Below, piece by piece: positions 419-25,523 of a stretch of 36,667 nucleotides of DNA. The DNA comes from a virus, in the IMG/VR virus record IMGVR_UViG_3300027710_000069, positions 1-36,667 of that record; one strand, 5' to 3'. The position numbers and the translations under genes were made by a program. How positions within the stretch are numbered: position 1 is the stretch's first letter; every line of letters begins with the position of its first letter. Below the pieces are notes generated by a model. It did no database searches and was not told the DNA's origin. It saw nothing but the letters and a program-made list of their open reading frames with translations.

Positions 419-638
419 GAGTTTACGAGGGGCTAAGAAGCGTTATCAAGCAGACGCCCTTGTCCCTTGTAGTTCGATAGATGAACTGGTGAAAAAAAAT
501 GTATTAGTTGCAAGGGTTGAACAGCTTGACTTTTGCATTAAACTGCCTAATACTTTGGCAATGACCTGTGACGAAGATTTACAAAGTCTTCGTGAACAAT
601 TAGAAAGAGAGCAAGAAGATGCCCAAACTAATGATTAA
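324..638 (+). CDS. Small protein overlapping portal and scaffold genes
   Basis: 104 residues, not recognised. I chose ATG 324 because GGAGG lies at 314-318 just before it; a GTG at 318 in the same frame is inside that ribosome binding site. The protein is rich in Leu, Glu and Gln with helical ends (LEEMEQLRVMKAALLELQQQ and SLREQLEREQEDAQ) that look like coiled coil, around a central part with three cysteines. It overlaps the portal end by 95 bases and the scaffold start by 20, so the three are translationally linked. A head-assembly role is inferred from position only. Confidence 0.7.
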   Translation: MATMLEEMEQLRVMKAALLELQQQPGWALLVESLRGAKKRYQADALVPCSSIDELVKKNVLVARVEQLDFCIKLPNTLAMTCDEDLQSLREQLEREQEDAQTND

Positions 639-1518
639 GCTTTTAAGTAAGCGCTTTAAGTCCCTGAATTTAATGACTGGTTTTGGTGATGATCCAGAGC
701 TTGATGTCGATGATGATTCCGATTCAGATGATTTAGAAGATTTTTTTGCAAACTTGGCGGACAACCCCGCTGACTTTAGTTCTGAAACTTTGGACGAGGA
801 CGACGAAGAAGAAGGGCAAGAGTCGGTTGCAGTGGAAGAAGCCGTTACCGACGAACCAGTCGTAGAGTCTAAACCTGTGGTCGAGGATGCTCCACAGGAA
901 GAAGCTCCAAAGCCGGTAGTCGAAGAGCAGCCAAAGGTCGAACCTAAAGTAGAAGAAGCTCCTGCTAAAACTGAAGAAGAGCAGGCTGCAGAATTTACTC
1001 AGGTTATGGGCGAGCTCCAGAAAGTATACGCAATCACAGAAGAAGATGCGGATGCAATTCTGACAGACCCTATGAACGCTGTGCCAAAGTTAATGGCCAA
1101 TGCTCATGTCCGCATGATGCAGACGGTGCATAATATGATGCAGCAAATGGTGCCGGCTATGGTCGAACAGCATCAAACACAGTCCAAAACTCGTCAGAGT
1201 TTGACTGAAAAATTCTCACAAGCATGGCCAGACTTGGCTGCAGAAGAACATAAGAGTGTGGTTATTGCCGCTATTCAAACTGTTCGTAGTGTGAACCCAA
1301 ACATTGACGTGGATACGTTAATTAAGAAAGTTGGTCCGGTAGCTTATTCTATTTTGGGAAAAGAAGTGCCGACTAAGACTCCGGCTGCGCCTGCTCCAAA
1401 AGCTGTTGCGAAGCCGAAGCCACATCAACCTGCACGTGCTCGTGAAACAACCACTGCAAAACCAAGTCCAACTGGGGACGCTGTTGCGGACTTCATTGGA
1501 ACATTGTTATCAAATTAA
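619..1518 (+). CDS. Capsid scaffolding protein (putative)
   Basis: 299 residues. After a basic-hydrophobic N-terminus (about residues 1-23, ending NLMTGFG) comes a very acidic Asp/Glu stretch (about 25-75), a Val/Pro/Glu-repeat region (about 75-120), a Met/Gln-rich helical region (about 125-220) and a Pro/Ala/Lys-rich basic C-terminus ending FIGTLLSN. Low complexity, charge asymmetry and the position directly before the capsid gene are typical of podovirus scaffolds, which drive procapsid assembly and then leave. The purine-rich stretch before ATG 619 supports this start; ATG 631 has no ribosome binding site. The N-terminus resembles those of the capsid protein and the ssDNA-binding protein (see findings). 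Confidence 0.75.
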   Translation: MPKLMIKLLSKRFKSLNLMTGFGDDPELDVDDDSDSDDLEDFFANLADNPADFSSETLDEDDEEEGQESVAVEEAVTDEPVVESKPVVEDAPQEEAPKPVVEEQPKVEPKVEEAPAKTEEEQAAEFTQVMGELQKVYAITEEDADAILTDPMNAVPKLMANAHVRMMQTVHNMMQQMVPAMVEQHQTQSKTRQSLTEKFSQAWPDLAAEEHKSVVIAAIQTVRSVNPNIDVDTLIKKVGPVAYSILGKEVPTKTPAAPAPKAVAKPKPHQPARARETTTAKPSPTGDAVADFIGTLLSN

Positions 1519-1526
1519 GGACTGCT

Positions 1527-2816
1527 ATGAAAACTTTAAACGTGTTTAAGACGGCTTTAATGCTGCAATTAATGGCCGGTTATGGTACGGCTGTGTCTAT
1601 TCAAGGTATCCGTGGTACAGGTGACTATGGTGCTGACGAGCGTCCAAAAGACTTTCGTGAATATATTTTGTGGGAAACTCCAAACGGTGATACCCCACTT
1701 ACTGGTTTGATGTCAAAGATGGGTTCAGAATCTCTGACAGATCCTGAGTTTTACTGGTTTGAAGAAGTCGAAGAACAAGTCCGTATCAAAGTAAACGGCG
1801 CGTTGACTAACGTGGCTACCGCTGCTGTAGTTCATGCTGGTTCTGTTGCTGATTCTACTGGCGCTCTGTCTGCTCTGCCTGGTGATCTGTACATTGTTGA
1901 AGACCAATATGGTCGTGTAAGTACGAATGAAATTGTTGCTATCGGTGCAGCGCCTTCTACTGACACCGGCTTAACCCTGATCCGTGGTCAACGTGGTACT
2001 GCTGCTGCTGCGATTGCAGATGGTGCGTTCCTGTTGAAGATTGGTACAGCTTTTGGCGAAGGTACTAATGCTCCAGGTTCTACTACTAAGAATCCAACTC
2101 GTTTTGATAATCTGGCTCAGATTTTTAAAACAACGTATCGTGTGACAAATACTGACATTAAGACGCAAAAACGTACTGGTGATGTATTGTCAAACGAGCG
2201 CAAACGCGCTATGTTTAAACACGCATCAGCTCTGGAATTTGCCTATTTGATGGGTAAGAAGTTCCAGGATATCGATCCAGCCAATGGCAAACCACGTCGT
2301 ACCACCGGCGGCCTTTTGTCTTTCATTACTACAAACCGCGTTCATTTCGGTACTGGCGGTATTCCATGGAACGAAGATAACTTTATCGACGCTATCAGCC
2401 CTGTCTTTGATATTACAGGTCCTGGTATCGGTAATGATCGTATCGTTTTTGCTGGTAATGGTGCTTTGACTGAGTTCAATAAGCTGATTAAAAATGCAGC
2501 TAACACCGAATTCAGCTATGACGGTATCTTAACTCTGTATGGTATGAACCTCCGCAGCTACACGCTGCCACAAGGTCGTATCCTGATTAAGACACACCCG
2601 CTGTTTAACCAGAATCCAAAGCTGCGTTATGCAATGCTGGGTCTGAATCCTGCTGGTATTAAAGATCGTTACCTGCGTAAAACCACTTTTAAAGACAACA
2701 TTCAACCGAATGATGCCGATTATAAAGCTGGTGAGTGGCTGACTGAATCTGGTTTAGAATTGCATTTTGAAAAATCGCATTTCTTCCTGACGAACGTTGG
2801 TGCTAAAATCGCTTAA
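1527..2816 (+). CDS. Major capsid protein, SU10/phiEco32-like (DUF5309 type)
   Basis: 429 residues. The segment RPKDFREYILWETPNG (about residues 36-51) followed by PLTGLMSKMG, and a C-terminal region with GRILIKTHP and a final beta-rich part, resemble DUF5309-type coat proteins with the HK97 fold. About residues 90-180 look like the beta-rich insert of this family (PGDLYIVEDQYGRVSTNEIV, then TLIRGQRGTAAA). AAGGA at 1516-1520 precedes ATG 1527. The first 20 residues are basic/hydrophobic and end QLMAGYG, matching the leaders of scaffold and ssDNA-binding protein, and may be removed. A terminator follows directly. Confidence 0.85.
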   Translation: MKTLNVFKTALMLQLMAGYGTAVSIQGIRGTGDYGADERPKDFREYILWETPNGDTPLTGLMSKMGSESLTDPEFYWFEEVEEQVRIKVNGALTNVATAAVVHAGSVADSTGALSALPGDLYIVEDQYGRVSTNEIVAIGAAPSTDTGLTLIRGQRGTAAAAIADGAFLLKIGTAFGEGTNAPGSTTKNPTRFDNLAQIFKTTYRVTNTDIKTQKRTGDVLSNERKRAMFKHASALEFAYLMGKKFQDIDPANGKPRRTTGGLLSFITTNRVHFGTGGIPWNEDNFIDAISPVFDITGPGIGNDRIVFAGNGALTEFNKLIKNAANTEFSYDGILTLYGMNLRSYTLPQGRILIKTHPLFNQNPKLRYAMLGLNPAGIKDRYLRKTTFKDNIQPNDADYKAGEWLTESGLELHFEKSHFFLTNVGAKIA

Positions 2817-2824
2817 TGTTGTGT

Positions 2825-2853
2825 GAAGCCAAGGATGGCTTCTTTTCTTTTTT
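2825..2853 (+). terminator. Rho-independent terminator after the capsid gene
   Basis: GAAGCC (2825-2830), loop AAGGAT, GGCTTC (2837-2842), then a nearly unbroken T tract to 2853. A classical intrinsic terminator nine bases after the capsid stop. It would lower transcription of tail genes relative to capsid. The T tract runs directly into the first 31-bp repeat element. Confidence 0.85.
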
Positions 2854-2883
2854 ACCTGTAATTTAGCAACCATTATACCTGTA
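2853..2883. promoter_or_regulatory. 31-bp TACNNGTA-bounded element, copy 1
   Basis: Both ends are TACCTGTA, 23 bp apart start to start, with an AT-rich middle containing TTTAGC and CCATTATAC. It lies between the capsid terminator and the ribosome binding site AAGGA (2884-2888) of the next gene. On the - strand the right side reads GGTATAATGG. It is one of five copies in intergenic regions. Function unknown; operator or phage promoter are the main options. Confidence 0.75.
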
Positions 2884-2894
2884 AGGATAATCTT

Positions 2895-3188
2895 ATGAAT
2901 CTGAAATCGATTGCCGTAACTGGCAAATCCAAAGCAGCTGTTGGCGTGACGGCTTTAAAGGAAGCGCTTCCGAACGGTCTTGAAATGAGTGATCATTTGC
3001 ACAGCGCTTTGGCTGAATTAGCTGCTGACAAAAAGGTAACTACTTTTCCTGAAAAGGCAGAAGTTGAATCTGTTCGTGGTTTGTCGGTTTTGATGTTTAG
3101 TGAAAAAGCTGGTGACATGTTTACCAATGATTTAGAGCTGGCTTTGTTAAGCCCTGTTAAAGAAGAAGAGCCAGAGCCTGCTAAATAA
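2895..3188 (+). CDS. Hypothetical small head-region protein
   Basis: 97 residues, not recognised. It starts with a Lys/Ala-rich segment, has a helical middle (MSDHLHSALAELAADKKV) and ends in an acidic EEEPEPAK tail. ATG 2895 is preceded by AAGGA (2884-2888). Its place between capsid and adaptor fits a head completion, decoration or joining protein, but no motif shows which. It forms its own short unit between the terminator at 2825 and the hairpin at 3211. Confidence 0.75.
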   Translation: MNLKSIAVTGKSKAAVGVTALKEALPNGLEMSDHLHSALAELAADKKVTTFPEKAEVESVRGLSVLMFSEKAGDMFTNDLELALLSPVKEEEPEPAK

Positions 3189-3210
3189 GACTGTTCTGGT
3201 CGGTGCTTGT

Positions 3211-3263
3211 AAGCTCCGAAGATTTAGCTAGAATATATCTAGTTAAGTTTTCGGAGCTTTTTT
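3211..3263 (+). terminator. Terminator-like hairpin that contains the next gene's ribosome binding site
   Basis: AAGCTCCGAA (3211-3220) pairs perfectly with TTCGGAGCTT (3250-3259), followed by T to 3263 and ATG at 3264. The 29-base loop holds a second small hairpin, CTAGA-atata-TCTAG. The GGAG at 3253-3256, which must be the Shine-Dalgarno sequence of the adaptor gene, lies in the descending arm of the stem. The structure could terminate transcription and, in read-through RNA, hide the ribosome binding site. Confidence 0.8.
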
Positions 3264-3962
3264 ATGGGCTATGATCAGTTAGTTGCAATCATTCAAACTC
3301 GTTGTGGTTTTCACGACAAATTAGCGGATGTTATTGCAGCAGAAGTCCAGCTTGCTCAATATGAATTAGAGCATGATGTAACTTTCAATCCTTGGTTTCT
3401 ATGGCGCGCTGCTGATGTTTGCGTGGATGAGACTTGTCTCAATATTACATTGCCTGTTGGTTTTTTACGGTTGTGTGAGTTTAACAATCCTTTGTTCCAA
3501 AAACAAGGTTGTCACCAAGCATACCCGTTAAACCGTGGTTTTGCTGATGATGTATACGCGCATAACATGCCTGCGGGCGTACCCTATGCCTTTACCTTAC
3601 AAGCTGGTTTTATCAGGCTGGATAAACGGGATACGGGCTTATTAAGGCTGTTTTACATTAGCACTAATGCTAAATTAAGCGCCGCTGTTCAAAAGAATCT
3701 TTGGACAGAAAATGCTTTTAATCTGCTTTTAAATAAAACCGGATTGGCTGTTGCACAGACTATCCAGGATGCTAGTGCGGTTTCTCGTTTTTCAGATGGT
3801 CTTACGATTGCCTACTCTTCTTTCAAAAAAGAGTGTGTAGCATATGAAGATTTTGGACGGGAGCAGTTGCGTATTAAAACGGAATCGAGTGTGTGGAACC
3901 AACGTCCTGTTGGTGGTTGGTATGAAGCCGGTACAAATACGCCTTGTGGCTGTGGGGGTTAA
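3264..3962 (+). CDS. Head-tail adaptor / tail tubular protein A-like
   Basis: 232 residues. The N-terminal part has helices and the pattern VIAAEVQLAQYELEHD followed by NPWFLWRA (about residues 24-50), typical of the adaptor family that joins portal to nozzle in podoviruses (T7 gp11, P22 gp4 and SU10 adaptor class). The middle is beta-rich (LPVGFLRLCEFNNP) and the C-terminal half helical (FSDGLTIAYSSFKKE). It ends in a Cys/Gly tail, CGCGG. Position after head genes and before tail genes agrees. Translation is probably controlled by the upstream hairpin that holds its GGAG. Confidence 0.75.
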   Translation: MGYDQLVAIIQTRCGFHDKLADVIAAEVQLAQYELEHDVTFNPWFLWRAADVCVDETCLNITLPVGFLRLCEFNNPLFQKQGCHQAYPLNRGFADDVYAHNMPAGVPYAFTLQAGFIRLDKRDTGLLRLFYISTNAKLSAAVQKNLWTENAFNLLLNKTGLAVAQTIQDASAVSRFSDGLTIAYSSFKKECVAYEDFGREQLRIKTESSVWNQRPVGGWYEAGTNTPCGCGG

Positions 3963-3964
3963 TT

Positions 3965-4354
3965 ATGAGTTGGCAAACACCAGAGCCTCCAGTCACAGTT
4001 CCAACCTGTGCTCCTTGTAATGACAAGTTTAATCCTATTGATTGGAACCAAAAGACTTTGCGAATTGATGCAACAGATCATTTGAATTTCTATTTGTTGA
4101 CGTATCAAGGCAACGCTCTTGTAGAAGAAGTTGTAGTTACAGTCGGCCCCTCTGTCGATACAAAGGGGATTGTGTTGGGAGCTTTTGTCTTGTTTCAAAG
4201 ACGGACAAATGTACCAGTTCGTTTTGTTAATGAAGCTGGTGTAACTCTTACGGGAGCTGGCGCTCTTAATGCGTATTTAAACGGGTCTATTGTTGGCGTA
4301 GTTTCAACAGCTCAAAACAACTGGGCATTTGGTGGGGATTTTGGCTTTGAGTAA
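3965..4354 (+). CDS. Hypothetical virion protein, beta-rich
   Basis: 129 residues from ATG 3965; an upstream in-frame start at 3944 would overlap the adaptor gene and is not needed. The N-terminus is Pro/Cys-rich (two cysteines, CAPC), and the rest predicts beta strands alternating with glycine turns (VEEVVVTVGPS, GIVLGAFVLFQRR, GAGALNAYLNG), like small beta-sandwich virion proteins. It begins two bases after the adaptor stop, so the two are coupled. Function not recognised. Confidence 0.7.
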   Translation: MSWQTPEPPVTVPTCAPCNDKFNPIDWNQKTLRIDATDHLNFYLLTYQGNALVEEVVVTVGPSVDTKGIVLGAFVLFQRRTNVPVRFVNEAGVTLTGAGALNAYLNGSIVGVVSTAQNNWAFGGDFGFE

Positions 4355-4823
4355 ACCTCGGCAAAAGATGGGTATAGTACATGCTGCGATGCTGCTTATT
4401 GGCGGCACTCGTCGTGTTGTCCCTGTTTATTGTAGAAAGGCTTTACGCTCATACCCTTTGCATAAGTTTATTAGAGACCCTGTAACCCTTGGAGTTACTG
4501 TTCATTCTGTTGAACTCCTTGATACAACTTTTGTGACGTCGACAGTTGATGCGTGTGTATTGCAAGTTGCTGTGACATCACTTGCGTTTCAAGATCCAAT
4601 CAGTATAGTTACGTTACAGGAAAAAGCTCGTTTAGCTGCATCAGTGACTTCTCTTACTTTGACTGATGCTGTGAAAGTAATGACTTTGTCTGAGAAAGCA
4701 ACTCTTCAAGTAGGCATTATTGCCGGAACCTTATCTCTTGTAGATAATGTTAAGATTATAACGACAACTGAAAAAGCTCGGTTGTCTGCAACTATTATAG
4801 CTTTATCATTGGAGGCACCATGA
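4347..4823 (+). CDS. Tail/appendage protein with about 26-residue repeats
   Basis: About 158 residues; the start is uncertain. TTG 4347 is preceded by GGTGGGGA at a usable distance; ATG 4368 is a shorter choice. After a basic N-terminus the protein has at least three repeats of about 25-26 residues with the pattern (S/T)L-x-(F/L)-x-D-x-(V/I)-x-(V/I)-x-T-(L/T)-x-E-K-A-(R/T)-L, ending in a partial copy. Such beta repeats suggest a fibrous or stacked beta fold. A similar single segment (SFTDVCKLGVSVFSLEMF) is found in the 481-residue protein two genes on. Ends in an ATGA overlap with the next gene. Confidence 0.7.
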   Translation: MSKPRQKMGIVHAAMLLIGGTRRVVPVYCRKALRSYPLHKFIRDPVTLGVTVHSVELLDTTFVTSTVDACVLQVAVTSLAFQDPISIVTLQEKARLAASVTSLTLTDAVKVMTLSEKATLQVGIIAGTLSLVDNVKIITTTEKARLSATIIALSLEAP

Positions 4824-8805: not shown

Positions 8806-8960
8806 TGAGAAGCCCTCCAACGAGTACGCCTACTGAAAAGTGGGCGTTTGAAGAGTTAGAGAAATTGGAGCGGGCTTTAGCGTCCGCTTTATCTGCTCTG
8901 GAAAACGCTGAAAAGCGCATTACTGCATTAGAAGAAAAGGTTGCTCAATCAGCAACTTAG
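8805..8960 (+). CDS. Small coiled-coil protein
   Basis: 51 residues, ATG 8805 overlapping the previous stop (TAATG), AGAGG upstream. After a short Pro/Thr-rich N-terminus it is one continuous amphipathic helix (FEELEKLERALASALSALE and AEKRITALEEKVAQ) with leucine/alanine heptads, surely an oligomeric coiled coil. It sits between nozzle and fibre genes, so it may connect or trimerise tail parts. Function not known. Confidence 0.7.
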   Translation: MRSPPTSTPTEKWAFEELEKLERALASALSALENAEKRITALEEKVAQSAT

Positions 8961-8990
8961 TTTATACTCAATCTTTTTGGGAGGTGACAT

Positions 8991-10316: not shown

Positions 10317-10324
10317 GGATTTCT

Positions 10325-11869: not shown

Positions 11870-11872
11870 GAT

Positions 11873-13264: not shown

Positions 13265-13272
13265 GACATAGC

Positions 13273-16200
13273 ATGGCCACAATCAATATTGACGCTATAC
13301 TTGGCGAGGAACCGTCTGCTGTAATGCAAACAACCAGCCAAGTGCAAGCCCCTCAATCTAATGATGACTTTTTAAATGAAGTGTGGCAGGGACAAAGACC
13401 AGGTACGCCTGGTCTAGCCGCTCCTGCAACCAGCACATCTCCAGTAGTTATTTCAATTGACAACCGCAGTTCTTTTGAAGTCGGAACTGATGCAGGTATG
13501 CGTGGTATTAAACAAATTGAAAGTAACATCTATTCTGCTTTCGGGGCTTTCGATAAAGCTCAGGAAATTGAAGCAGACATTGCTGCCAATTACGCGCCTG
13601 CCAACCCAGACATCACAGCTGATAACGCAAGCATAGCTGGATTTGCAGGTGAAGCGATTGCATCAAACGTCCCAAACTTAGCGGCTGGTGTAGCTCTTGC
13701 TTCCATCCCCGTTGTAGGTTGGGGATTGGCTGGTGCGTATTTCTTCACCCAGCTCTATGGAGAATCTCGTAAAAACATTCTCGATGAAACAGGCACTGAC
13801 AACCCACTCGCCGCTATCGGACCTGCTTCTATCAACACATTGATGGAAATGAACCCTGTCTTAAAAGTTGCCAATAAGTTAGGCCTCGGTTCTGCTGCTA
13901 AAAAATCAATAGCAGATGTGGCTAAAGAAGCATCTGAAAAAGGCGTACTTACGCGGACTAAAGATGCTCTTAAATTCGCAGGAGAGATTGGGGTAAAAGA
14001 AGGTGCCATTGAAGTCGCACAGCAAATGTCAAATCTGGCTACAGTTCGTGTGCTTCAAAATGAAGCTATTATCCAATCGTTAGACAAGCAAGAAGTTAAC
14101 GAAGCTATTAATAACTTTGCCGGTGGTATGTTTGGCGGAGCTGTCTTAGGCGGTGCTGCCCAAACCTACGCCGATATATCTGTCGATAAAAAAGCTGTAA
14201 AACAAGTCGAAGAAATCGAAAGACAAATTCAGTTTCATGACGATTTGATTAACAAAGTCGTAGCTATGAAAGAACAAGCTACACCATCAAACCGCATAGC
14301 TGAGGGCTTAGCGGCTGCAACTATAAAGCCGGATACCAGCACTACAACGCCAAGCCAAGCGCAGCCTACCACTAGCAGCGACCCAATAACTGCTATGCAG
14401 GATAACGCGGATATTGCGGATAAAGAAAAAGCACCTGCCCAATCTTTAAAGCAAGAAGCATTGGACATTAATACGCCAATTGCAGAGACTGTAGTTGCCT
14501 TACCACAGGAGCAACAAGATGTATTTCTCAACGGACTACGTCAGCAGCGTTATGCCTTAGAGCAGCGTCTTAATTTCATAGACAAAACTTTAACCTCAAT
14601 CGGAGAATCTGCTACCCCATTAACTGGCGGCTCTATGATCCCTTTAGTTGAGGAACAAAATCTACAAGTTTTAACCGGAGAGCTCCAAGCCCCTGCTTTA
14701 CTAAACTTAGCCAATCCTGATATGAAACAGTACGTCAGAGACCCTGACGGTGTTGTGACATCTAAGTCACCAACCCTTGGTGTATCAGGCACCTCCGTTG
14801 TATCTTCTGTTGATTTAAATCAGAGTTTTGTTGGTGGGCATTCAACCTTTTTTGATATCGTTGACCAGTTTAACTCAATTGTAAAAGACTTGGGTATGGA
14901 TATAAACCCTACAACAAAGTCCCCGATGAAATTCGTTATCGAAGTCAACAATGAAAAAGACTCACAAGCAGCTGTCCAGGACACTAATACCTATGTAATG
15001 CGCCTTGGTACAAATGGTGCAATGACTATGCAGAATGCGACCGAAACTTTGTTGCACGAACTGGGTCATTTGATGAAAATAAACATCCTGGCATCCGCTC
15101 CAAAAGAAGTCTACCAAGCAATTAATGCGTCTTGGCAAGACCGTTTAATGTCAGTGAAATATCGTGACGCTTTTGTCAACCAGAACAAACCGACAGACCG
15201 TCGCAAAGTACCTCACTCAAAAATTAATGCACGTGATTTTAATTCGGAAATTTATGACACATCGTTACCGGAATACGCTGCCGAACAGTTCTATAGAGCT
15301 CTTGTCAACAAGGTTGGCAAAGGCGACTTCAACATGCGAAAACAAGCGCCGTCTATGTTTGCAAATTTTCTTAAAAGATTCAGAAGATTATTTGCTCAAA
15401 GCAAATCTATGCAATCAAAGTTTGCGCCCACAAATTACAAGCAAGAAACTTTTGACAGATTTGTAGAACGCATGACTCTTACACGTCAGATTGCTGAGCT
15501 CAAAGCTAAAGAGCAACAAGCAACTTACGACAAGAAAGCTGCCGCAGAAGTTATGGGCGAAACTCGCACAGCAGATCTCCCTAAATCAGACTTAGAAAAA
15601 GTAAGTCTGTTTATGCGTAAGATGGGTGTATCGGAAGAGAACGCAGATCGTTTTGATGAGATGGTAAATCTCAACATGGGATTTCTTGGCGAAGGCACTC
15701 TTGGGGCTTCGATGAAAGGAGTCATGACTCCTATTCAAATTGCGGAGCAAGCTGACAAACGTGGCTTTAACCTCCCGTATCAATATATGGAAATTGTTCA
15801 AGCGTTTCAACAGACTAAAATGAAGATAGTTGAAGCCGCCGATACTGTCATGAAAAGTTGGCAATCAGAAAGCCAACATGCCCGTGACGTATCTCGTATG
15901 TTATTTGTAGCGAGTACAGCCAGTGATCAAAAAGGACGTCGATTAACTGCTGAAGAATTAGAAGTCATTAAAAATGATTTAAAGATTTCTGATCTTGCAT
16001 TTGCATCCTGGCAACAGACTGATGAATCCCTCCGTTTAGTCCTAGACCCTATGGAAGCAACATCTATTTACGAAGTTGCAAGAGCCAATATTCCGAACAG
16101 AGCAAAGGCCAAGGAATTCAGGGACAGGTACATGGAAGCTACCTCCGAAGGCGAACGCATGGATCTTGTCGAAGAATACACTGGGGAGTCAGCAATCAAT

Positions 16201-18480
16201 TTAGACCCTGATTCTAAGGATGTCTTTTCTGAGTTTTATAAAGACCTGCAAAAAACTACTAAACGCTTTACAGACATGAGGGATCGCAACTACTTCCCGC
16301 GTTCACGTCTTGGTCAGTTCTATGTCAGAGTTATCGCAACGGAGGACGAAACTACATGGGAAAACTACACAGCAAACGAAGGAGAAACCGTCGGATTCTA
16401 TTCTTTCGATACGGAAAAAGAGCAGAAAGAATTTCTCGAATCTGTGAAGAACGAGACAGCGACAAGTGGTGGCGTGAGATTTTACGGCAGCAAGATGGCA
16501 TCATCAATCTACTCAACGATGGGGATGCCGAATGTGATTGTAGAGAAAGTTAGGAAGGAGCTTGAAGCAGAAGGAACACTTTCAGTCGAAGACAAACGGG
16601 TGCTTAAAGACTTAGCACTTGAACTAAGTCCTGGTAAAAAGTTTCTTAAGCACATGACTCGCCGCAAAGGTATCGCTGGTTATAACGAAGATGCTGCTCG
16701 AGTCTACGCTAATTATATGGCATCCGCTAGTAACCATATAGCCAGAGCCGAACATGCTTCTGACATGGCGGACGCTTTGCAACGTATGGAAGATTTTCCA
16801 AAGCAATACTCTGCAAACTATAACAAGACTTTAGCCAACGGCATTCAGTCAATTACTGAGTATTATAAACGACACTTTAAATATGTGATGGCTCCTGACA
16901 ACGATTTTGCAAACCTTCGGGCAGCGGGTTTTCTCTGGTATTTGGGTTTTAATATTAAGTCAGCTGCTGTAAACTTTATGCAGACGCCTTTAGTGCTTTA
17001 CCCAGTCCTGGCTGGCTACACATCAGATGCACATGCAATGCGTCGTATTGGTGGTGCTTTGCAGGACGTCTTTAAAGCAGTTAAAAAACCAGATACTTTA
17101 GAGCCAGACTTGCTAGTCACTATTGACGAAATGATCAAAGCAGGTCTGATAGACGAATCTATGGTTTCTGATTTAGCAGCAATGGGTGAAGAGACTGGGC
17201 TTCGTCGTTTAGTCCCTGGGTATGATTTGCAATCTTCGTATCAAAAGTTTTCTTACTATGCTGGATCTATGTTCCGTTATGGCGAGAAGTTTAATCGAAT
17301 GGTTGCAACAATAGCTTCACATCGTATTGCAAAAGACAGAGGGTTAACCGATCAAGACGAGATTACAAAGTTTGTTCGTGACGTTATTCAATCATCTCAA
17401 TTTGAATATTCAAGATTCAATCGGGCTGAGTTCATGCGTGGTAAAAAGTCTGTTATCTTTTTATTTTGGCAATACATGCAACACGCAAGCTACCTCTTTT
17501 TCGGTGGCAAGGGCGGAAAGACTGCGCTTCGTATGTGGATCTTAGCAGGCGTCATTGCAGGTCTGGAAGGCTTGCCGTTTGCAGAGCTTTTACTAGGACT
17601 GTTAGACCTTGGCGGAACTAAGGTCAAAGCCATCTTTGGATCGCAAGACCCTCGTGTAGACATTCGTAAAGAGATTCGTGAAATACTTGTCGAGATGGAG
17701 GTTAATCCTGACTTAATCTTGCGAGGCACTTCTCACTCTTATGGTATGTTTGCTTTCCACATGCTGCCATTTTTGGGAGTTCCTTTCCCAAACGTAAACA
17801 CACGAGGGTCTTTAGGTTATGGCGATCCGATTCCTTGGTTCGATGGGTTAACTGACCCGACTGTGACTGATGTGGAAAAAGCCGTCTATAAAACAGTAGC
17901 TGGTGTTGCAGGTCCGATTGGTGGTATTACTTTGACAGGTGTGCAGGCCATGATGTCAAATGAACCAGACCAATGGAAACGGTGGGAAGCGGCAGCTCCA
18001 ACCTTCATTCGTAACGCGTCGGCGGGTACACGCTGGCTTGCTCGTGGGGAAGAAGTTACAAGACAGCAGGCCAAGCTCGTTGGTTTTGAGACACCAGAGG
18101 AACGCATTAGCGCAGTCCTGAAAGCGATGGGCTTCCAAGCAACTGCTTTAGATACTCAACGTGAGCAGATGCGTGCAGTCCAGGTTGCAGCTATGTACTA
18201 CGAGTCACGACGTAGTGCCTTACTTGACCGAGTAAGCTACGCATATGCAACAAACAATCGGGAAGCTATTCGAGATGCAATGGATGATGTGACAGATTTT
18301 AATAAGGAGTTATTAAAGACACCTTCATTAGCACCGCTGACCATCAGTGGTAAAACTCTGAACAAGAGTATCAGCGGGAAGCTTGAAGTTAAAGCAGAAA
18401 TCGAAGCAAACATTTTACAAGGAGAAAACATGTACTTGCTTCAAAAAGATATCCAAAAACTTTACCCAACAGGACAATAA
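13273..18480 (+). CDS. Giant internal virion/ejection protein with gluzincin-like metallopeptidase motif
   Basis: 1735 residues; AGGA upstream of ATG 13273. A membrane-like segment lies at about 128-160 (AAGVALASIPVVGWGLAGAY). Residues 595-599 are HELGH within TLLHELGHLM, the HExxH zinc motif, and YAAEQ with Glu 671 follows about 75 residues later and could be the third ligand, as in gluzincins. The remainder is mostly helical, with another hydrophobic region at about 1390-1450 (MWILAGVIAGLEGLPFAELLLG). Size and position match the largest ejection protein of podoviruses (T7 gp16 class), but with a peptidase motif where others carry a transglycosylase. Activity is not proven. Confidence 0.75.
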   Translation: MATINIDAILGEEPSAVMQTTSQVQAPQSNDDFLNEVWQGQRPGTPGLAAPATSTSPVVISIDNRSSFEVGTDAGMRGIKQIESNIYSAFGAFDKAQEIEADIAANYAPANPDITADNASIAGFAGEAIASNVPNLAAGVALASIPVVGWGLAGAYFFTQLYGESRKNILDETGTDNPLAAIGPASINTLMEMNPVLKVANKLGLGSAAKKSIADVAKEASEKGVLTRTKDALKFAGEIGVKEGAIEVAQQMSNLATVRVLQNEAIIQSLDKQEVNEAINNFAGGMFGGAVLGGAAQTYADISVDKKAVKQVEEIERQIQFHDDLINKVVAMKEQATPSNRIAEGLAAATIKPDTSTTTPSQAQPTTSSDPITAMQDNADIADKEKAPAQSLKQEALDINTPIAETVVALPQEQQDVFLNGLRQQRYALEQRLNFIDKTLTSIGESATPLTGGSMIPLVEEQNLQVLTGELQAPALLNLANPDMKQYVRDPDGVVTSKSPTLGVSGTSVVSSVDLNQSFVGGHSTFFDIVDQFNSIVKDLGMDINPTTKSPMKFVIEVNNEKDSQAAVQDTNTYVMRLGTNGAMTMQNATETLLHELGHLMKINILASAPKEVYQAINASWQDRLMSVKYRDAFVNQNKPTDRRKVPHSKINARDFNSEIYDTSLPEYAAEQFYRALVNKVGKGDFNMRKQAPSMFANFLKRFRRLFAQSKSMQSKFAPTNYKQETFDRFVERMTLTRQIAELKAKEQQATYDKKAAAEVMGETRTADLPKSDLEKVSLFMRKMGVSEENADRFDEMVNLNMGFLGEGTLGASMKGVMTPIQIAEQADKRGFNLPYQYMEIVQAFQQTKMKIVEAADTVMKSWQSESQHARDVSRMLFVASTASDQKGRRLTAEELEVIKNDLKISDLAFASWQQTDESLRLVLDPMEATSIYEVARANIPNRAKAKEFRDRYMEATSEGERMDLVEEYTGESAINLDPDSKDVFSEFYKDLQKTTKRFTDMRDRNYFPRSRLGQFYVRVIATEDETTWENYTANEGETVGFYSFDTEKEQKEFLESVKNETATSGGVRFYGSKMASSIYSTMGMPNVIVEKVRKELEAEGTLSVEDKRVLKDLALELSPGKKFLKHMTRRKGIAGYNEDAARVYANYMASASNHIARAEHASDMADALQRMEDFPKQYSANYNKTLANGIQSITEYYKRHFKYVMAPDNDFANLRAAGFLWYLGFNIKSAAVNFMQTPLVLYPVLAGYTSDAHAMRRIGGALQDVFKAVKKPDTLEPDLLVTIDEMIKAGLIDESMVSDLAAMGEETGLRRLVPGYDLQSSYQKFSYYAGSMFRYGEKFNRMVATIASHRIAKDRGLTDQDEITKFVRDVIQSSQFEYSRFNRAEFMRGKKSVIFLFWQYMQHASYLFFGGKGGKTALRMWILAGVIAGLEGLPFAELLLGLLDLGGTKVKAIFGSQDPRVDIRKEIREILVEMEVNPDLILRGTSHSYGMFAFHMLPFLGVPFPNVNTRGSLGYGDPIPWFDGLTDPTVTDVEKAVYKTVAGVAGPIGGITLTGVQAMMSNEPDQWKRWEAAAPTFIRNASAGTRWLARGEEVTRQQAKLVGFETPEERISAVLKAMGFQATALDTQREQMRAVQVAAMYYESRRSALLDRVSYAYATNNREAIRDAMDDVTDFNKELLKTPSLAPLTISGKTLNKSISGKLEVKAEIEANILQGENMYLLQKDIQKLYPTGQ

Positions 18481-18481
18481 C

Positions 18482-18859: not shown

Positions 18860-18863
18860 AAAG

Positions 18864-18889
18864 AAAGGGAGCCTAGTGCTCCCTTTTTT
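18864..18889. terminator. Bidirectional terminator between the converging arms
   Basis: AAAGGGAGC (18864-18872), loop CTAGT, GCTCCCTTT (18878-18886), followed by T to 18889. The opposite strand has TTTCTTTTTA after the same stem, so it can stop both the rightward late transcript and the leftward transcript. It touches the second 31-bp element. Confidence 0.85.
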
Positions 18890-18919
18890 ACTGGTATAAT
18901 AGCAGGCAAATTACCTGTA
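18889..18919. promoter_or_regulatory. 31-bp TACNNGTA-bounded element, copy 2
   Basis: Ends are TACTGGTA and TACCTGTA, 23 bp apart start to start. On the + strand it contains TGGTATAATAGC, an extended -10-like sequence; on the - strand TTTGCCTGCTATTATAC. It lies between the bidirectional terminator and the stop of the DUF3987 gene, where a promoter would be hard to explain in either direction. This position is the best argument that the elements are not simply promoters. Confidence 0.75.
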
Positions 18920-18926
18920 TAAATTA

Positions 18927-20153: not shown

Positions 20154-20213
20154 AAGGCTAATCCTCCGGCTTATCCCGCCTTTATTATATGTAAGTTAAG
20201 TTACCCTACAGGG

Positions 20214-21083
20214 CTATGCGGCAAGCGGCCATAACGTATTGCGTTGCGTTGTAGCAAGACCTGTTTTACCATCAATAACCCAACCATCCCAAGTCACATC
20301 ATCTAACTTACCAAAGTCAAGTCCGATGCCGAGTGTACTTGGCAGAACAACGGGATCATTATACGGTAAAACTACGGAGTTAAAAGCTGCTTGCACTAAA
20401 GGCGCTGCTTCGTCCAGTCTGCCTTCTGCAATTTGAAACGCAAGGGAGTCATGCACTTGCATCTTAACTTCAAGTAAAGACTTGTCAATTAAATCTAACT
20501 CTTTCCATACCATATTGATTACGTTACCGACAGTCGACTGTGGTATCCAAGCCAAGGCTTCACTAAGAGCATTAGCATGGTCACGCCCATCAAAGAAGTT
20601 TTTAGTAAAGCCAAAAATATTTGTGACTTTCTTTTCAACCATCATCTGATTGTAAATTCGCTTATGCCAAGCTGCAATCTTTGGGTGCGCGCCAAACCAA
20701 TTTTTAATAAAGAGCTCAGCTTCAAGCACAGTGATACCAAGCGTAGACGCAAGCGTAGTCGGGTATACATTGTAATTAACTGCGTGTACGCCAGCCTTAG
20801 CTCGAGCTCTGTTTGGGTGGTCTTTTGTGGGACATGAGCCAAAGATAGCTTTAGCATTTTCAGTGTGCAAATCCATAGTTGGATCCAAAAAGATTTCTTT
20901 AAGGATTTCATCATCAGCATCCCAAGCTACAACACGGGCATCTGCTTGAGCTAAGTCAGCATCTGCCGCAATAAACCCTTCATCTGGTAAAAAGAGTTGC
21001 TTAATGTTTACCTGCTTTACGCCTTTGCCAAACGGAGGACGCTTCGGTGCTGCATAAAAATTCTGATTTAAAAGACCATTCAT
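20214..21083 (-). CDS. DNA polymerase I, C-terminal (catalytic palm/fingers) piece
   Basis: 289 residues. Motif A is DADLAQADARVVAW (about 41-54), the O-helix region (motif B) RARAKAGVHAVNYNVYP (about 92-108) and motif C QVHDSLAF (about 210-217). These are the catalytic parts of family A DNA polymerase; the exonuclease and the first palm motif are in the upstream gene. The gene starts 2 bases after that gene's stop, in the -1 frame, with AAGGG six bases before ATG 21083, so it can be translated separately. The pieces would have to associate, or be fused by frameshifting. Confidence 0.85.
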   Translation of the reverse strand: MNGLLNQNFYAAPKRPPFGKGVKQVNIKQLFLPDEGFIAADADLAQADARVVAWDADDEILKEIFLDPTMDLHTENAKAIFGSCPTKDHPNRARAKAGVHAVNYNVYPTTLASTLGITVLEAELFIKNWFGAHPKIAAWHKRIYNQMMVEKKVTNIFGFTKNFFDGRDHANALSEALAWIPQSTVGNVINMVWKELDLIDKSLLEVKMQVHDSLAFQIAEGRLDEAAPLVQAAFNSVVLPYNDPVVLPSTLGIGLDFGKLDDVTWDGWVIDGKTGLATTQRNTLWPLAA

Positions 21084-21085
21084 AA

Positions 21086-22735
21086 TTAACCCTTACTCAA
21101 ATTCTGTAAATTGAAACCCTGATCAAACGCATCTTGTTTAGATGCAAGTCTAAAAGTGTCAGTCCCAGGTAGCATATAAGTAGTACGAGCGCGGCCATCC
21201 GGACTTACATGAGCAGCCAAATATAAATTATAAAACTGCATCACAGACCTGTAGGTGCGTAGCACATCACAAACCAGTCGAAGGATTGGCTCACGCTTTC
21301 CGATGTTAATAAGAGCATCATCATTTGTGGTCGGTCTCTTAGTCTTTTTATCCAACACAGGCTCAATGCCAAGCTGTTTGTAAAACAAAAAGGACATCTG
21401 CGTTGGCGAATCAAACCAAAAAGAATTACCAGTCGCATTTACCTTTTCTTGCGGAATCATATAAAGCAACCACGCTTTATAGTCAGCAATCTTTACTTCG
21501 TATTCACGACGCCAGCGCTGTTGCAACGCTTTGTCAAAACGAATACCAGCAATGACTGGTTTTAAAATGATGTTTTGCATCTCACGTTGAAAGCTCACAG
21601 GCAGTGTCTCTCCCATCCGCTTATGAACTTTGTCAAGTTCTTCATAGACTTCAAATGTATAGCAGTTATCGTAACCATTGTAGAGGGCATACGTTTTAAA
21701 ATCATCTGCTGACTTAAACGATTTGTGAAAGTCTTTACCGTCCTGTTTCCAGTAACGATACCAGGAGCAATACAATGATGAAAGAAAAGCCAAGTCTAAT
21801 GACAAGCCCTTTGTGAAAAGCACATGAGCTTCAACCATGGTATCGCGATAAATTTTTGGAAGAAAGCCCCAACGAGTTGTCACATACTGGATATCGTATT
21901 GAAAGTTTTGACCGATAATCTGAATGTTAGGATGGGTTAAAAAAGTTTTAAGCTTTTTAACAATAGCAAATTCTTGGTCAACTGACCAATACGAAGTCCC
22001 ATCTGGTTTAATAAACGGGATAACCAGAGCGTTGCGTTTATCCCAAGCAAACCCAATAAAGGTGGGCAATGGATTCCTGGTTTCCAAGTCGACAGCGTAC
22101 GGTTTGCAACCCGTTGCCAATGAATCAATATGCCAATCCAATTGCTCAATTAATTCATCAAAGCCATATTCAAATTGGATATTAAACTTAGGCATATCCC
22201 AGTTTGATAAATCACGCAGACGAGCTAAGTCACGTTTAAACGGCATATGTCTTTCAGGAGATTTATAAAGAGCTAAAGGCGAGTAAGTCACAAGCATATT
22301 AAACGTAGACCATTTAAGCTGTGAACCACGCCAAGCTTCTATCGACGTGCCAAAACCAAACGCAGACAGAGCAAGCACGCTCATACAGATAATCACTTTA
22401 GGGTTTGTAAAACGAATTGTATCAAACAAATCTGCAAACGGCTTTTCCAAAGAAGGCTCAAAGAAAAAACCACCAGCATGGACGGTATCTTCTCTGTGAA
22501 TCTTCGCCTTAGTCGTCCGGTAAAAATCTGTAATTTTAGAATTACCTAATGGGTATGACAACACTGAGTGCCAAGATACGCGTGAGCAATTAATGCCCAA
22601 TTCGCGCAAGTGTTTATAGACGTATGACTTAGCATTACCGTCTGCTATATGCCCGTTCTCAAACTCACTGATGCTTGGATAATCAAAGACAACAAGAATG
22701 TCGCTGTCTTGGATGGCATGGGTATTAATATACAT
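21086..22735 (-). CDS. DNA polymerase I, N-terminal piece: UDG-like + 3'-5' exonuclease + partial palm/thumb
   Basis: 549 residues from ATG 22735 (GGAG seven bases upstream); a TTG at 22747 lies in the ribosome binding site. Residues about 10-170 look like a uracil-DNA glycosylase-fold domain (PKVIICMSVLALSAFG, then AWRGSQL and MLVTYSPLAL), as in SPO1 polymerase; the usual His of the TxHPS-type motif is Ser 152, so activity is doubtful. The DEDDy exonuclease follows: VDLETRN (Asp 216, Glu 218), GQNFQYD and YNGYDNC. It then has thumb and palm sequence to RLASKQ...FNLQNL and stops at SKG, where other family A polymerases continue to motif A. Confidence 0.85.
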   Translation of the reverse strand: MYINTHAIQDSDILVVFDYPSISEFENGHIADGNAKSYVYKHLRELGINCSRVSWHSVLSYPLGNSKITDFYRTTKAKIHREDTVHAGGFFFEPSLEKPFADLFDTIRFTNPKVIICMSVLALSAFGFGTSIEAWRGSQLKWSTFNMLVTYSPLALYKSPERHMPFKRDLARLRDLSNWDMPKFNIQFEYGFDELIEQLDWHIDSLATGCKPYAVDLETRNPLPTFIGFAWDKRNALVIPFIKPDGTSYWSVDQEFAIVKKLKTFLTHPNIQIIGQNFQYDIQYVTTRWGFLPKIYRDTMVEAHVLFTKGLSLDLAFLSSLYCSWYRYWKQDGKDFHKSFKSADDFKTYALYNGYDNCYTFEVYEELDKVHKRMGETLPVSFQREMQNIILKPVIAGIRFDKALQQRWRREYEVKIADYKAWLLYMIPQEKVNATGNSFWFDSPTQMSFLFYKQLGIEPVLDKKTKRPTTNDDALINIGKREPILRLVCDVLRTYRSVMQFYNLYLAAHVSPDGRARTTYMLPGTDTFRLASKQDAFDQGFNLQNLSKG

Positions 22736-22748
22736 CAAGAACTCCAAA

Positions 22749-22764
22749 GGGGAGCAAGCTCCCC
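22749..22764 (-). terminator. Hairpin directly before the polymerase ribosome binding site
   Basis: GGGGAGC-AA-GCTCCCC, read on either strand, with TTTGGAG following on the - strand. The T run is short, so termination would be weak; it may act as an RNA-stabilising or processing structure. It ends three bases before the GGAG of the polymerase gene. Confidence 0.55.
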
Positions 22765-22771
22765 ATAAAGA

Positions 22772-22918
22772 TTAATACAGACGCAAAGCTATACGCACGG
22801 AACAATGTACACGAGTTAACAACATCGGGATTGGCCATGCTGGGTGTAACGTCTGTTGAGCACCTAACATACGCGCTTCAAAAAGTTTACGTTGATAATC
22901 AGACAGTTGTTTGGTCAT
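22772..22918 (-). CDS. Small hypothetical protein (48 residues)
   Basis: An open frame of 49 codons fills the gap between the DUF4406 and polymerase genes. ATG 22918 has GGAG at a 7-base spacing. The protein begins MTKQLSDYQRKLFEARMLGA, basic and helical, and ends in a hydrophobic/basic IPMLLTRVHCSVRIALRLY. Length and ribosome binding site support translation; no function recognised. The hairpin at 22749-22764 follows its stop. Confidence 0.55.
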   Translation of the reverse strand: MTKQLSDYQRKLFEARMLGAQQTLHPAWPIPMLLTRVHCSVRIALRLY

Positions 22919-23432
22919 TTTTAACTCCAGAATTTAAATAGGTTTCTAAATCTTGTTCTGTGTAGAACACCGGTATTCCATGTCGTGTTGCAAGCTCAAC
23001 TTCCGCAGCCGTTCCTTTTGACTTTGGGTCTGCGTTGAATACATAGACGCAATCACAATACAACAACAAGTCGAGTAAGCCATCAAGCCAGTACCGATGA
23101 CCGCCCCGACCGCTTTGCTCAAGAAAGCTATCTGGGATGTCGTAATCAAAAAGAGCGCAAAGCAAGTGAGGAGTAATTGCAAAGCCGCCAAGCTCATGGA
23201 CACGTATAGCATGAGTACGAGCGTCTTGGATGTTTGCTGTTGTATGTGCTTTGTCAATTCCACGATATGGTCCTGCTAAATAAACTCTTTTAAAATTTGA
23301 ATGACGGCTGACGCTGTAAGGCACCCCTAACGCCGGAGGCATTGTTGAAACTCGCTGAGTTTCCTTGTCATCCCAATGGCCTGAGAACACCATAGATCCG
23401 CCATAATTATCTTCGTTTTCACTGGCACTCAT
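22899..23432 (-). CDS. DUF4406-like / nucleoside deoxyribosyltransferase-fold protein
   Basis: 177 residues. RVYLAGPYRG (about 49-58), NIQDARTHAIRVHELGGFAITPHL and SKGTAAEVELATRHGIPVFY are the family pattern of DUF4406 and the related nucleoside 2-deoxyribosyltransferase fold, which binds nucleotides or nucleosides. The family-type start is at about residue 45; the first 45 residues are a polar, Gly/Ser-rich extension. GGAGG precedes ATG 23432, which overlaps the previous gene by 14 bases. A role in nucleotide salvage or in modifying nucleotide signals is possible. The last 20 bases overlap the 48-residue gene. Confidence 0.7.
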   Translation of the reverse strand: MSASENEDNYGGSMVFSGHWDDKETQRVSTMPPALGVPYSVSRHSNFKRVYLAGPYRGIDKAHTTANIQDARTHAIRVHELGGFAITPHLLCALFDYDIPDSFLEQSGRGGHRYWLDGLLDLLLYCDCVYVFNADPKSKGTAAEVELATRHGIPVFYTEQDLETYLNSGVKNDQTTV

Positions 23433-24855
23433 TGTACGCCTCCACTAACATCGGGTAATACGTATCAGACAACTCCACTGAGTATGAGATACGTTTAGAC
23501 GCGTGTGCTGCACGAAGCATGTTACCTTGTCCAGCAAACCCATCAAAGACATACTCACCAGCAAGTGTAGACCGTTCAATCAAGAACTTGTAAAGGTCAG
23601 TTGGCTTGCCTGCCGGATGTTTTTGGTTTTGAATCTGAGGGATATCAATAACAGCTAAGTCAAGTTTGGCTTGCTCATGCCCACCTTTGATAGCATAAAG
23701 GAGACACTCATAAGACTTACGTGGCCAGTGGTTTGGCTTTGGATAAGACGCCACGTTCCCTTTATTCCAAATGAATGGGAAATACATGACCTCAAATACA
23801 GCTTTTGTCTTGAGCATAATCTTGGACTCTTTAATACCCAGGTTATGCTGGAGCGCACATTCTGGTGTAACAAGAAATCCAACCTTACCTTTTTCATCGA
23901 CTCGATAGGAGTCAAATATTGAGCGAATCTTCTCGAACTTTGCAAAGTCGCAGAAGGCATACAGGTGAGCCGCATCAAGGGTGATGCGATCCCATTCCGG
24001 TATAAGGGCTTCGAAGAGATTGAAGCAATAGGCTTCATCGTCATTGTATTCGTGCCACGTGCCGTCCCACGATTGGTCTTTGTGCATTTCGATGCCATAC
24101 GGAGGGTCGGTAACAATAGCTCTAAAGGTATCGGACGGAACTGTCTTGATAACATCCCTGACATCTCCTTTAAAAATCTTATGTTGAGACTGGTTGACCA
24201 CAGTTGTTGCTGCCACTCGTTCCCGATGGGCTTGTGCCGCTTTCTTTTCAACAATCTTTACAGCGTCTTTTAATGACTTAGCTTTAGCAACATCAGGATC
24301 GTCGAGATGATTAACAATGGAAAGATGGGCACCAGCAGAAGAAGGAGCAGTCCCGAAAACTTGAGCAACTTCTGCTTGAGTGACCACAACATCAGGTAAC
24401 ACGTCATTAGCATCAGGATCGCTTTCCGCTTTGGCTTCTTGTTCACGTTGCTTACGTCCAGCAATAATTTCTTTAATACGAGCAAGTGCTCGTGCCTTTT
24501 CTTGCCAAGTCAAATCCTGGCGATCAGAGTTCTCAGACAGCTCAAGCTCTTCTAACTTAAGCACATCTGTTTCGTTTAAAAGATTAACCGGAATCATACC
24601 AACAGGAAGGACTTCCGAGTTGTACTTAACAGGGATGCCGTGTTTAGCCATAGTCCGCATACAACGGAAACGTCGTTCGCCATATACGATGGCTGAATTT
24701 TCCAGGGTGTCAATACCGGGCGGGTGCAGTAAACCGTCTTCGACGATACGGTGATACAGAGCTTCAATAGCTTCTTTGTCAAAGTGACTACGCTGGCGCT
24801 CTGGTTTAATCTTAATCTTGTCTACATGAACAAGTTGTAACCGGATTGTTTCCAT
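23419..24855 (-). CDS. ParB-domain / beta-class DNA methyltransferase fusion
   Basis: 478 residues from ATG 24855 (GGAG upstream); a GTG at 24882 lies inside the terminator. N-terminal ParB nuclease-like domain: IKPERQRSHFD, IVYGERRFR (GERR about 59-62), ELSENSDRQDLTWQEKAR. An HTH follows at about 158-184 (VTQAEVAQVFGTAPSSAGAH). The C-terminal domain has TDPPYG (about 249-254) before FDGFAGQGN (about 437-445), the order of beta-class N6-adenine/N4-cytosine methyltransferases. Such fusions are known in phages and plasmids. No endonuclease partner is seen, so it is an orphan enzyme; the ParB part may give target choice or DNA binding. Confidence 0.85.
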   Translation of the reverse strand: METIRLQLVHVDKIKIKPERQRSHFDKEAIEALYHRIVEDGLLHPPGIDTLENSAIVYGERRFRCMRTMAKHGIPVKYNSEVLPVGMIPVNLLNETDVLKLEELELSENSDRQDLTWQEKARALARIKEIIAGRKQREQEAKAESDPDANDVLPDVVVTQAEVAQVFGTAPSSAGAHLSIVNHLDDPDVAKAKSLKDAVKIVEKKAAQAHRERVAATTVVNQSQHKIFKGDVRDVIKTVPSDTFRAIVTDPPYGIEMHKDQSWDGTWHEYNDDEAYCFNLFEALIPEWDRITLDAAHLYAFCDFAKFEKIRSIFDSYRVDEKGKVGFLVTPECALQHNLGIKESKIMLKTKAVFEVMYFPFIWNKGNVASYPKPNHWPRKSYECLLYAIKGGHEQAKLDLAVIDIPQIQNQKHPAGKPTDLYKFLIERSTLAGEYVFDGFAGQGNMLRAAHASKRISYSVELSDTYYPMLVEAYNECQ

Positions 24856-24870
24856 AAATTTCTCCGTAAA

Positions 24871-24895
24871 AAAAGGAGCCACTAGGACTCCTTTT
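24871..24895. terminator. Terminator between SSB and ParB-methyltransferase genes
   Basis: AAAAGGAG (24871-24878), 9-base loop, CTCCTTTT (24888-24895). On the - strand seven T follow the stem, a good intrinsic terminator 20 bases after the SSB gene; on the + strand the T run is weaker. The next gene's GGAG follows at once on the - strand. Confidence 0.8.
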
Positions 24896-24913
24896 GTTTA
24901 AACCAATGAATAA

Positions 24914-25420
24914 TTAGTCAGGCTGAGTAACACGGCTTACCGTATTGTATTCAACACCAGAATCGCCTTTGGCAACTTTGGTTAAACCAATCACGTTGCG
25001 GCCTTCTAACTGGGCAATAGTAGCATCACCACCATACAGACCAGCGGCAGCGAATAACAGACCCAGGTTAATGTTTTGGTTAACACCAGTCGCCAGCATA
25101 TTGTTTTCATCTAAGTCGAGGAAAGTTTCATAACGGGCACCGATTTTTTCAACACCAATACGGGACAGTTCGTTTTGATCGGCCAGCTCTAAAGGCAGAG
25201 ACAAACGCGCCCAAGGCTTACCTTCTTTTTCACCAGACTGGATTTTTGGTTTGCCGGTTTTGTACATAAACTCACCTTCACCAATCAGGGTGCGGGCAGT
25301 CGCAAAATCTTCAGTTGCCAGTTCGACGTTCAACAAAGCGTTTGCATCAAAGGCACCAAAGCCCGCCATCAGAGTCAGAGTCAAAGCATTCAGAGTCGCA
25401 TTACGTTTTAAAGTCTTCAT
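24914..25420 (-). CDS. Single-stranded DNA-binding protein (DUF669-like OB fold)
   Basis: 168 residues. After a 22-residue leader (MKTLKRNATLNALTLTLMAG, then FG) comes a beta-rich body with GKPWARLSLPLELADQ, ARYETFLDLDENNMLATGVN and LEGRNVIGLTKV, which match the pattern of DUF669-type phage ssDNA-binding proteins (.W..L.L...I.D, ...FLDL....L..G.N). It would coat unwound DNA for polymerase and for the Sak4-like recombinase coded next to it. AGGAA lies before ATG 25420, after a 100-base structured leader. The N-terminal leader is shared with scaffold and capsid. There is no acidic C-terminal tail. Confidence 0.65.
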   Translation of the reverse strand: MKTLKRNATLNALTLTLMAGFGAFDANALLNVELATEDFATARTLIGEGEFMYKTGKPKIQSGEKEGKPWARLSLPLELADQNELSRIGVEKIGARYETFLDLDENNMLATGVNQNINLGLLFAAAGLYGGDATIAQLEGRNVIGLTKVAKGDSGVEYNTVSRVTQPD

Positions 25421-25443
25421 ATAAATTCCTATTCGATTTAAGC

Positions 25444-25458: not shown

Positions 25459-25480
25459 AGGTTTAATACTACTTGAATAT

Positions 25481-25513: not shown

Positions 25514-25523
25514 AAATATTTTT

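What the first reader, a model, noticed from the sequence alone, without database searches (positions are those of the whole stretch)
619..25420. Scaffold, capsid and ssDNA-binding proteins share an N-terminal leader ending LxLM[A/T]G[F/Y]G
Residues 1-23 of the scaffold (end LNLMTGFG), 1-20 of the capsid protein (LQLMAGYG) and 1-22 of the SSB-like protein (LTLMAGFG) have the same plan: a basic start (MKTL in two), 8-10 mainly aliphatic residues, then the Gly-aromatic-Gly end. The bodies are unrelated, and the third gene is on the other strand 23 kb away and belongs to the replication genes. An internal start at the Met is unlikely since each has a ribosome binding site before the long form. 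These are probably the phage's most abundant proteins. A removed propeptide, a localisation tag or a translation-start effect are possible. I know of no described leader like it.
Basis: partly seen in the sequence, partly recalled or inferred. Interest (0 to 1): 0.8.

Follow-up and report, generated by a model that had tools for sequence, protein, structure and literature searches.

The report
Shared leader on three phage proteins
One uncultured phage carries nearly the same 20-23 residue leader at the front of its capsid, scaffold and single-strand DNA-binding proteins; in two of them it is an extra piece that relatives lack, so it probably acts as a common processing or targeting tag.

Summary
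LM[AGST]G[FYW]G occurs three times in the six-frame translation of the window, each time at the end of the N-terminal leader of the three named proteins; shuffles give 0.005 per window. Comparison adds the main point. In the capsid protein and the OB-fold SSB-like protein the leader is an in-frame addition ending where orthologues start: 24 distinct SSB orthologues begin at or within a few residues of M-x-x-F, and about 74 of 78 capsid homologues begin at or near MA-x-IAGLRGTG. In the scaffold it is a modified version of a basic-aliphatic N-terminus present in about half of related scaffolds. Codons differ between the copies, so the match is at protein level. The closest precedent is the leader shared by scaffold and capsid of Staphylococcus phage 80-alpha, removed by host protease Prp. 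The motif here differs and also marks a replication protein. Most likely it is a shared protease-recognition leader; a weakly supported C39-like peptidase (35104-35547) could act on it. Cleavage is inferred, not shown. An uncut docking tag is the main rival.

The parts
619..687 (+). Leader of the scaffold-like protein, residues 1-23, MPKLMIKLLSKRFKSLNLMTGFG
   Evidence: a basic-aliphatic N-terminus is a trait of about half of related scaffolds
619..1518 (+). Scaffold-like protein, 299 aa, acidic, directly before the capsid gene
   Evidence: position; weak similarity to the scaffold-position proteins of Microcystis phage Mel-JY34 and Vibrio phage VS-ABTNL-3
1518..1521 (+). AGGA ribosome binding site before the long form of the capsid gene
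1527..1586 (+). Leader of the capsid protein, residues 1-20, MKTLNVFKTALMLQLMAGYG; absent from orthologues
1527..2816 (+). Major capsid protein, SU10_MCP family
   Evidence: PF17236 135 bits; phrog_1328
25355..25420 (-). Leader of the SSB-like protein, residues 1-22, MKTLKRNATLNALTLTLMAGFG; absent from orthologues
   Evidence: disordered in the structure model
24914..25420 (-). SSB-like OB-fold protein among the replication genes
   Evidence: model mean pLDDT 84.7; VIA-align Z 10.0 to PrgE; one orthologue matches phrog_378 SSB at E=0.0012
25427..25430 (-). AGGA ribosome binding site before the long form of the SSB gene
35104..35547 (-). Candidate C39-like cysteine peptidase, 147 aa, possible enzyme for the leader
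   Evidence: best of 246 window ORFs with a C39 profile, E=0.0038; 1 of 5000 shuffles reaches its score; not significant in Pfam or PHROGs

Best explanation
The three N-termini are one short recognition leader, gained in this phage lineage. It was placed in front of the old start codons of the capsid and SSB genes, and the existing N-terminus of the scaffold was remodelled to match (or served as the source). The most likely working is that a single protease, of the phage or the host, binds the basic-aliphatic LxLM stretch and cuts at or near the Gly-aromatic-Gly end. This would release capsid and SSB proteins of ancestral length, and a scaffold whose N-terminus is needed only early in assembly. 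A phage-encoded C39-like peptidase is a candidate enzyme. Shown: shared motif, non-chance, junction at the ancestral start, protein-level similarity, absence from readable relatives. Inferred: that one factor recognises it, that it is cleaved, where, and by what.
For: Motif only at these three N-termini and far beyond chance. Leaders end exactly where capsid and SSB orthologues begin. Synonymous codons differ between copies, so the peptide is what is kept. Leader disordered in the SSB model. Precedent: the 80-alpha scaffold and capsid share a leader with L27, all cut by Prp; [quoted passage not shown]). A C39-like ORF ranks first of 246 ORFs with a C39 profile.
Against: No cleavage data. The Prp motif is not met and no Prp is in the phage. 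The leaders lack the Gly-Gly of C39 substrates. The C39-like ORF is not significant in Pfam or PHROGs and its structure model is poor. One genome only; readable relatives lack the leader. SSB proteins are not known to be processed this way in phages (own knowledge).
Confidence: 0.45

Rival explanations
1. The leader stays on and is a docking tag. The basic-aliphatic segment binds one partner (membrane, chaperone, portal, or a replication-assembly focus) and so brings scaffold, capsid and SSB proteins to the same place.
For: About half of related scaffolds keep a basic-aliphatic N-terminus followed by a Gly-rich or acidic linker without any known protease. In 80-alpha the scaffold N-terminus is essential though its cleavage is not, and a shared chaperone was proposed there (PMC5744158). 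Unrelated hydrophobic extensions occur on two or three other capsid proteins of the family.
Against: Leaders end sharply at the ancestral starts and share a Gly-aromatic-Gly end, which a helix-like tag does not need. No shared partner known.
Confidence: 0.28
2. A translation-start cassette: the leader codons give strong initiation for abundant proteins and the peptide is incidental.
For: Capsid and SSB leaders both start ATG AAR ACT TTA after AGGA.
Against: The scaffold starts differently. The most similar part is 12-20 codons downstream, and there the codons differ while the residues agree. Other genes of the window lack it.
Confidence: 0.1
3. Signal-peptide-like membrane targeting or export of the three proteins.
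For: Basic start and a hydrophobic stretch; in bacterial genomes several N-terminal hits of the loose pattern look like signal peptides.
Against: The proteins work in the cytoplasm on DNA and procapsids; the leaders are only moderately hydrophobic, the scaffold's hardly so.
Confidence: 0.08
4. Chance resemblance of three N-termini.
For: The pattern was selected after it had been seen; the scaffold-capsid pair alone scores only 28.
Against: 0.005 expected hits per shuffled window against three found, all N-terminal. The capsid-SSB pair is an outlier among 903 pairs, and such scores are rare in 15,120 pairs from relatives. Two are additions at ancestral starts.
Confidence: 0.05

Closest known systems
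Prp-cleaved leader of Staphylococcus phage 80-alpha scaffold (gp46) and capsid (gp47), shared with ribosomal protein L27 (PMC9405229, PMC5744158)
   Same: One short basic-aliphatic N-terminal leader on scaffold and capsid proteins with unrelated bodies; L-x-L in the core; found on other non-homologous phage proteins too
   Different: Motif LNLQ[FH]F'A against LxLM[AT]G[FY]G; 13-14 residues against 20-23; here also on an SSB; known relatives infect Gram-negative bacteria; no Prp in the phage; cleavage unproven
Double-glycine leaders and C39 peptidases
   Same: Short leader ending in glycine; a C39-like ORF in the same genome
   Different: No Gly-Gly at the end, substrates are not secreted peptides, no ABC transporter, enzyme assignment weak
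Basic-aliphatic N-termini of scaffolds in the same phage group
   Same: Basic-aliphatic start followed by Gly-rich or acidic sequence in 24 of 51 scaffolds compared, window included
   Different: No Gly-aromatic-Gly end elsewhere; no such sharing with other genes found in those loci
Prohead-protease propeptides of capsid and scaffold proteins (T4, HK97 type; own knowledge)
   Same: N-terminal part of capsid and scaffold removed during assembly
   Different: No prohead protease found in the window (the left end with portal and terminase is missing); propeptides there are not on replication proteins

Membership tests
Prp-type phage leader (80-alpha) | same N-terminal leader on scaffold and capsid protein | tested here: met
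Prp-type phage leader (80-alpha) | cleavage motif (D/N)LQ(F/L)F'A | tested here: not met
   window leaders end LxLM[AT]G[FY]G; motif from PMC9405229
Prp-type phage leader (80-alpha) | host Prp and extended L27 with the same leader | not testable with these tools
   host unknown; no Prp in the phage record
Prp-type phage leader (80-alpha) | leader removed in vivo | not testable with these tools
   needs N-terminal mass spectrometry
C39 double-glycine leader system | Gly-Gly (or Gly-Ala) at the cleavage site | tested here: not met
   leaders end AGYG, AGFG, TGFG
C39 double-glycine leader system | C39 peptidase with Q-x4-DC and H...DP boxes | tested here: inconclusive
   E=0.0038 of 246 ORFs and 1 of 5000 shuffles; Pfam and PHROGs not significant
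C39 double-glycine leader system | ABC transporter domain fused to the peptidase | tested here: not met
   the ORF is 147 aa with no transporter part
SU10-type major capsid protein | Pfam PF17236 over its cut-off | tested here: met
   135 bits against a cut-off of 24.1
Single-strand DNA-binding OB protein | OB fold | tested here: met
   model pLDDT 84.7; Z 10.0 to PrgE, about 6 to PriB and SSB
Single-strand DNA-binding OB protein | binds single-stranded DNA | not testable with these tools
   inferred from fold and position among replication genes only
Signal peptide | basic n-region, hydrophobic h-region, AxA-type c-region | tested here: inconclusive
   capsid and SSB leaders moderately hydrophobic, scaffold not; no predictor available

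The most novel reading that the evidence does not exclude
A phage carries its own leader-and-protease pair: a new leader motif on capsid, scaffold and SSB proteins is cut by a phage C39-like cysteine peptidase, coupling replication and head assembly through one processing step.
Probability: 0.15. Interest if true: 0.85.

Novelty: new variant of a known kind. Interest (0 to 1): 0.6.

Why it matters
Leaders shared between non-homologous proteins of one phage are described from the Prp system of Gram-positive hosts, where their purpose is still unclear. A different motif, in a phage group whose known hosts are Gram-negative, present on a replication protein as well and gained in front of ancestral starts, would show that such leaders arise independently. 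It would give a clean comparison between phages with and without the leader.

Tried and rejected
Strict leader pattern in IMG/VR: one hit, not at an N-terminus. Loose patterns in IMG/VR: chance hits only. tblastn of the leaders alone in 50,697 phages: none, but such short queries are weak. A host protein sharing the leader, as L27 does in the 80-alpha case, could therefore be neither shown nor excluded. HExGH zinc-protease motif in the 1735-aa virion protein: present in some relatives without the leader, so not specific. Single-sequence structure of the C39-like ORF: pLDDT 43, fold search meaningless. Sinorhizobium hit to that ORF: chance, E=0.1 and no fitting protein. A shared leader in relatives with other hydrophobic capsid extensions (L032, L043, L056): their scaffolds do not share it, and the L056 SSB lacks it.

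Full report
The window is a 36.7 kb fragment, 43% G+C, of an uncultured tailed phage with head genes on the left and replication genes on the opposite strand at the right. The capsid protein belongs to the SU10_MCP family (PF17236, 135 bits). Annotated relatives infect Vibrio, Caulobacter, Roseobacter, Pseudomonas and others; the closest, Vibrio phage VS-ABTNL-3, shares 49% of capsid residues.

The observation. The three N-termini are exactly as described. In a six-frame translation of the window the core LM[AGST]G[FYW]G occurs three times, and nowhere else than at these N-termini. Two hundred dinucleotide shuffles give a mean of 0.005 hits of LM[AT]G[FY]G. Among all N-terminal 28-residue pairs of 43 genes, capsid against SSB scores 47 and the next best 32; in 15,120 such pairs from related phages only 10 reach 40, some of them between evident tandem paralogues. 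The ribosome sites before the long forms of capsid and SSB are clear (AGGA). For the scaffold there is only a purine-rich stretch. I see no comparable site before the internal Met codons (by eye).

What the leader is, seen against relatives. Capsid homologues in 78 IMG/VR loci and in the annotated phages nearly all begin MA-x-IAGLRGTG or within a few residues of it. The window protein continues upstream of this point by its 20-residue leader plus one or two residues. Orthologues of the SSB-like protein were found by a profile in 11 of 13 relatives tested and in further IMG/VR contigs, 24 distinct ones in all. Each has a start at, or a few residues before, the conserved Phe, none with a leader; F24 of the window protein, two residues after its leader, is invariant. 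A positional counterpart in phage MW202489 also begins MSFDP. So in two unrelated genes the leader was added in front of the ancestral start. The scaffold differs: 24 of 51 scaffolds compared, the window's included, begin with a basic-aliphatic stretch, followed by Gly-rich or acidic sequence, but only the window's ends Gly-aromatic-Gly. The scaffold may thus be the source, or may have been remodelled.

Level of selection. Between capsid and SSB the identical residues of LxLMAGxG use different synonymous codons at several positions (TTA/CTG, GCC/GCG, GGT/GGC). This speaks against a recent copy and against an RNA or DNA signal, and for a peptide that is recognised as such. In the SSB model (mean pLDDT 84.7) the leader is disordered, while the body is a confident OB fold closest to PrgE (Z 10.0) and, less closely, to bacterial SSB and PriB.

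Distribution. The leader was not found in other readable genomes: strict and loose DNA patterns over IMG/VR, tblastn over 50,697 phages, and a truncated GTDB scan. The tools state that records very near the window may be left out. One hint of a relative remains. BFVD entry A0A5Q2WBJ9 (174 aa) matches the SSB model over as many columns as its own length at 40% identity, with TM-score 0.83 but rmsd 8.7, whereas the next hit, of the same length as the Vibrio phage orthologue (163 aa), has rmsd 3.4. A floppy aligned N-terminus would give that pattern, but its sequence could not be read here.

How it most likely works. The closest described case is Staphylococcus phage 80-alpha, whose scaffold and capsid share a basic-aliphatic leader with ribosomal protein L27, all three cut by the host protease Prp. 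The same cleavage motif occurs on non-homologous proteins of other phages, and the scaffold N-terminus is essential for assembly while cleavage itself is not (PMC9405229, PMC5744158). By analogy I favour a protease-recognition leader (0.45). Removing it at the GxG end would restore proteins of about ancestral length, which fits the junctions. The Prp motif itself is not met, and no Prp is in the phage.

A candidate enzyme. ORF 35104-35547 on the minus strand has Q21-x4-D26-C27 and H91...D106-P in the arrangement of C39 peptidases (by eye). A profile built from C39 domains of fetched genomes ranks it first of 246 window ORFs (E=0.0038), with both catalytic boxes co-linear; one of 5000 shuffles reaches its score. 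The family was chosen after looking at the sequence. Pfam, PHROGs and a single-sequence structure give no significant support. No homologue was found in 11 relatives, two of them short fragments. This is a lead, not an identification. The leaders lack the Gly-Gly of C39 substrates.

Rivals. An uncut docking tag (0.28) fits the scaffold data well. A translation cassette is disfavoured by the codon differences, and export by the function of the proteins. Chance is very unlikely. The novelty lies in the motif, the phage group and the presence on a replication protein, not in the principle of a shared leader. All function here is inferred from a single genome.

Noticed in passing
20214-22747: DNA polymerase A is split into two ORFs in different frames (21086-22747 and 20214-21083), with a purine-rich site and ATG just after the first stop; both parts match PF00476 in order. 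The Vibrio phage relative also has polymerase spread over several ORFs, the Microcystis phage has one.
   Followed up: partly
13273-18480: The 1735-aa virion-type protein carries an HELGH zinc-protease motif, kept as HExGH in large proteins of some relatives.
   Followed up: partly
L043:10001, L056:9983, L032:8544: Three other capsid proteins of the family have unrelated hydrophobic N-terminal extensions (the L032 start is uncertain), not shared with their scaffolds.
   Followed up: partly
25477-25561: Two inverted repeats lie just upstream of the SSB gene (14 and 19 nt arms), possibly a terminator or regulatory site between it and the ATPase gene.
   Followed up: no
L004:1134 and L004:12474; L019:1320 and L019:13549: In relatives, two separate proteins share an N-terminal motif of the type D(E/D)LNxxWPEG, probably a common virion attachment segment.
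   Followed up: no
23419-24882: DNA methyltransferase with an N-terminal ParB-like nuclease domain (PF02195 plus PF01555).
   Followed up: no
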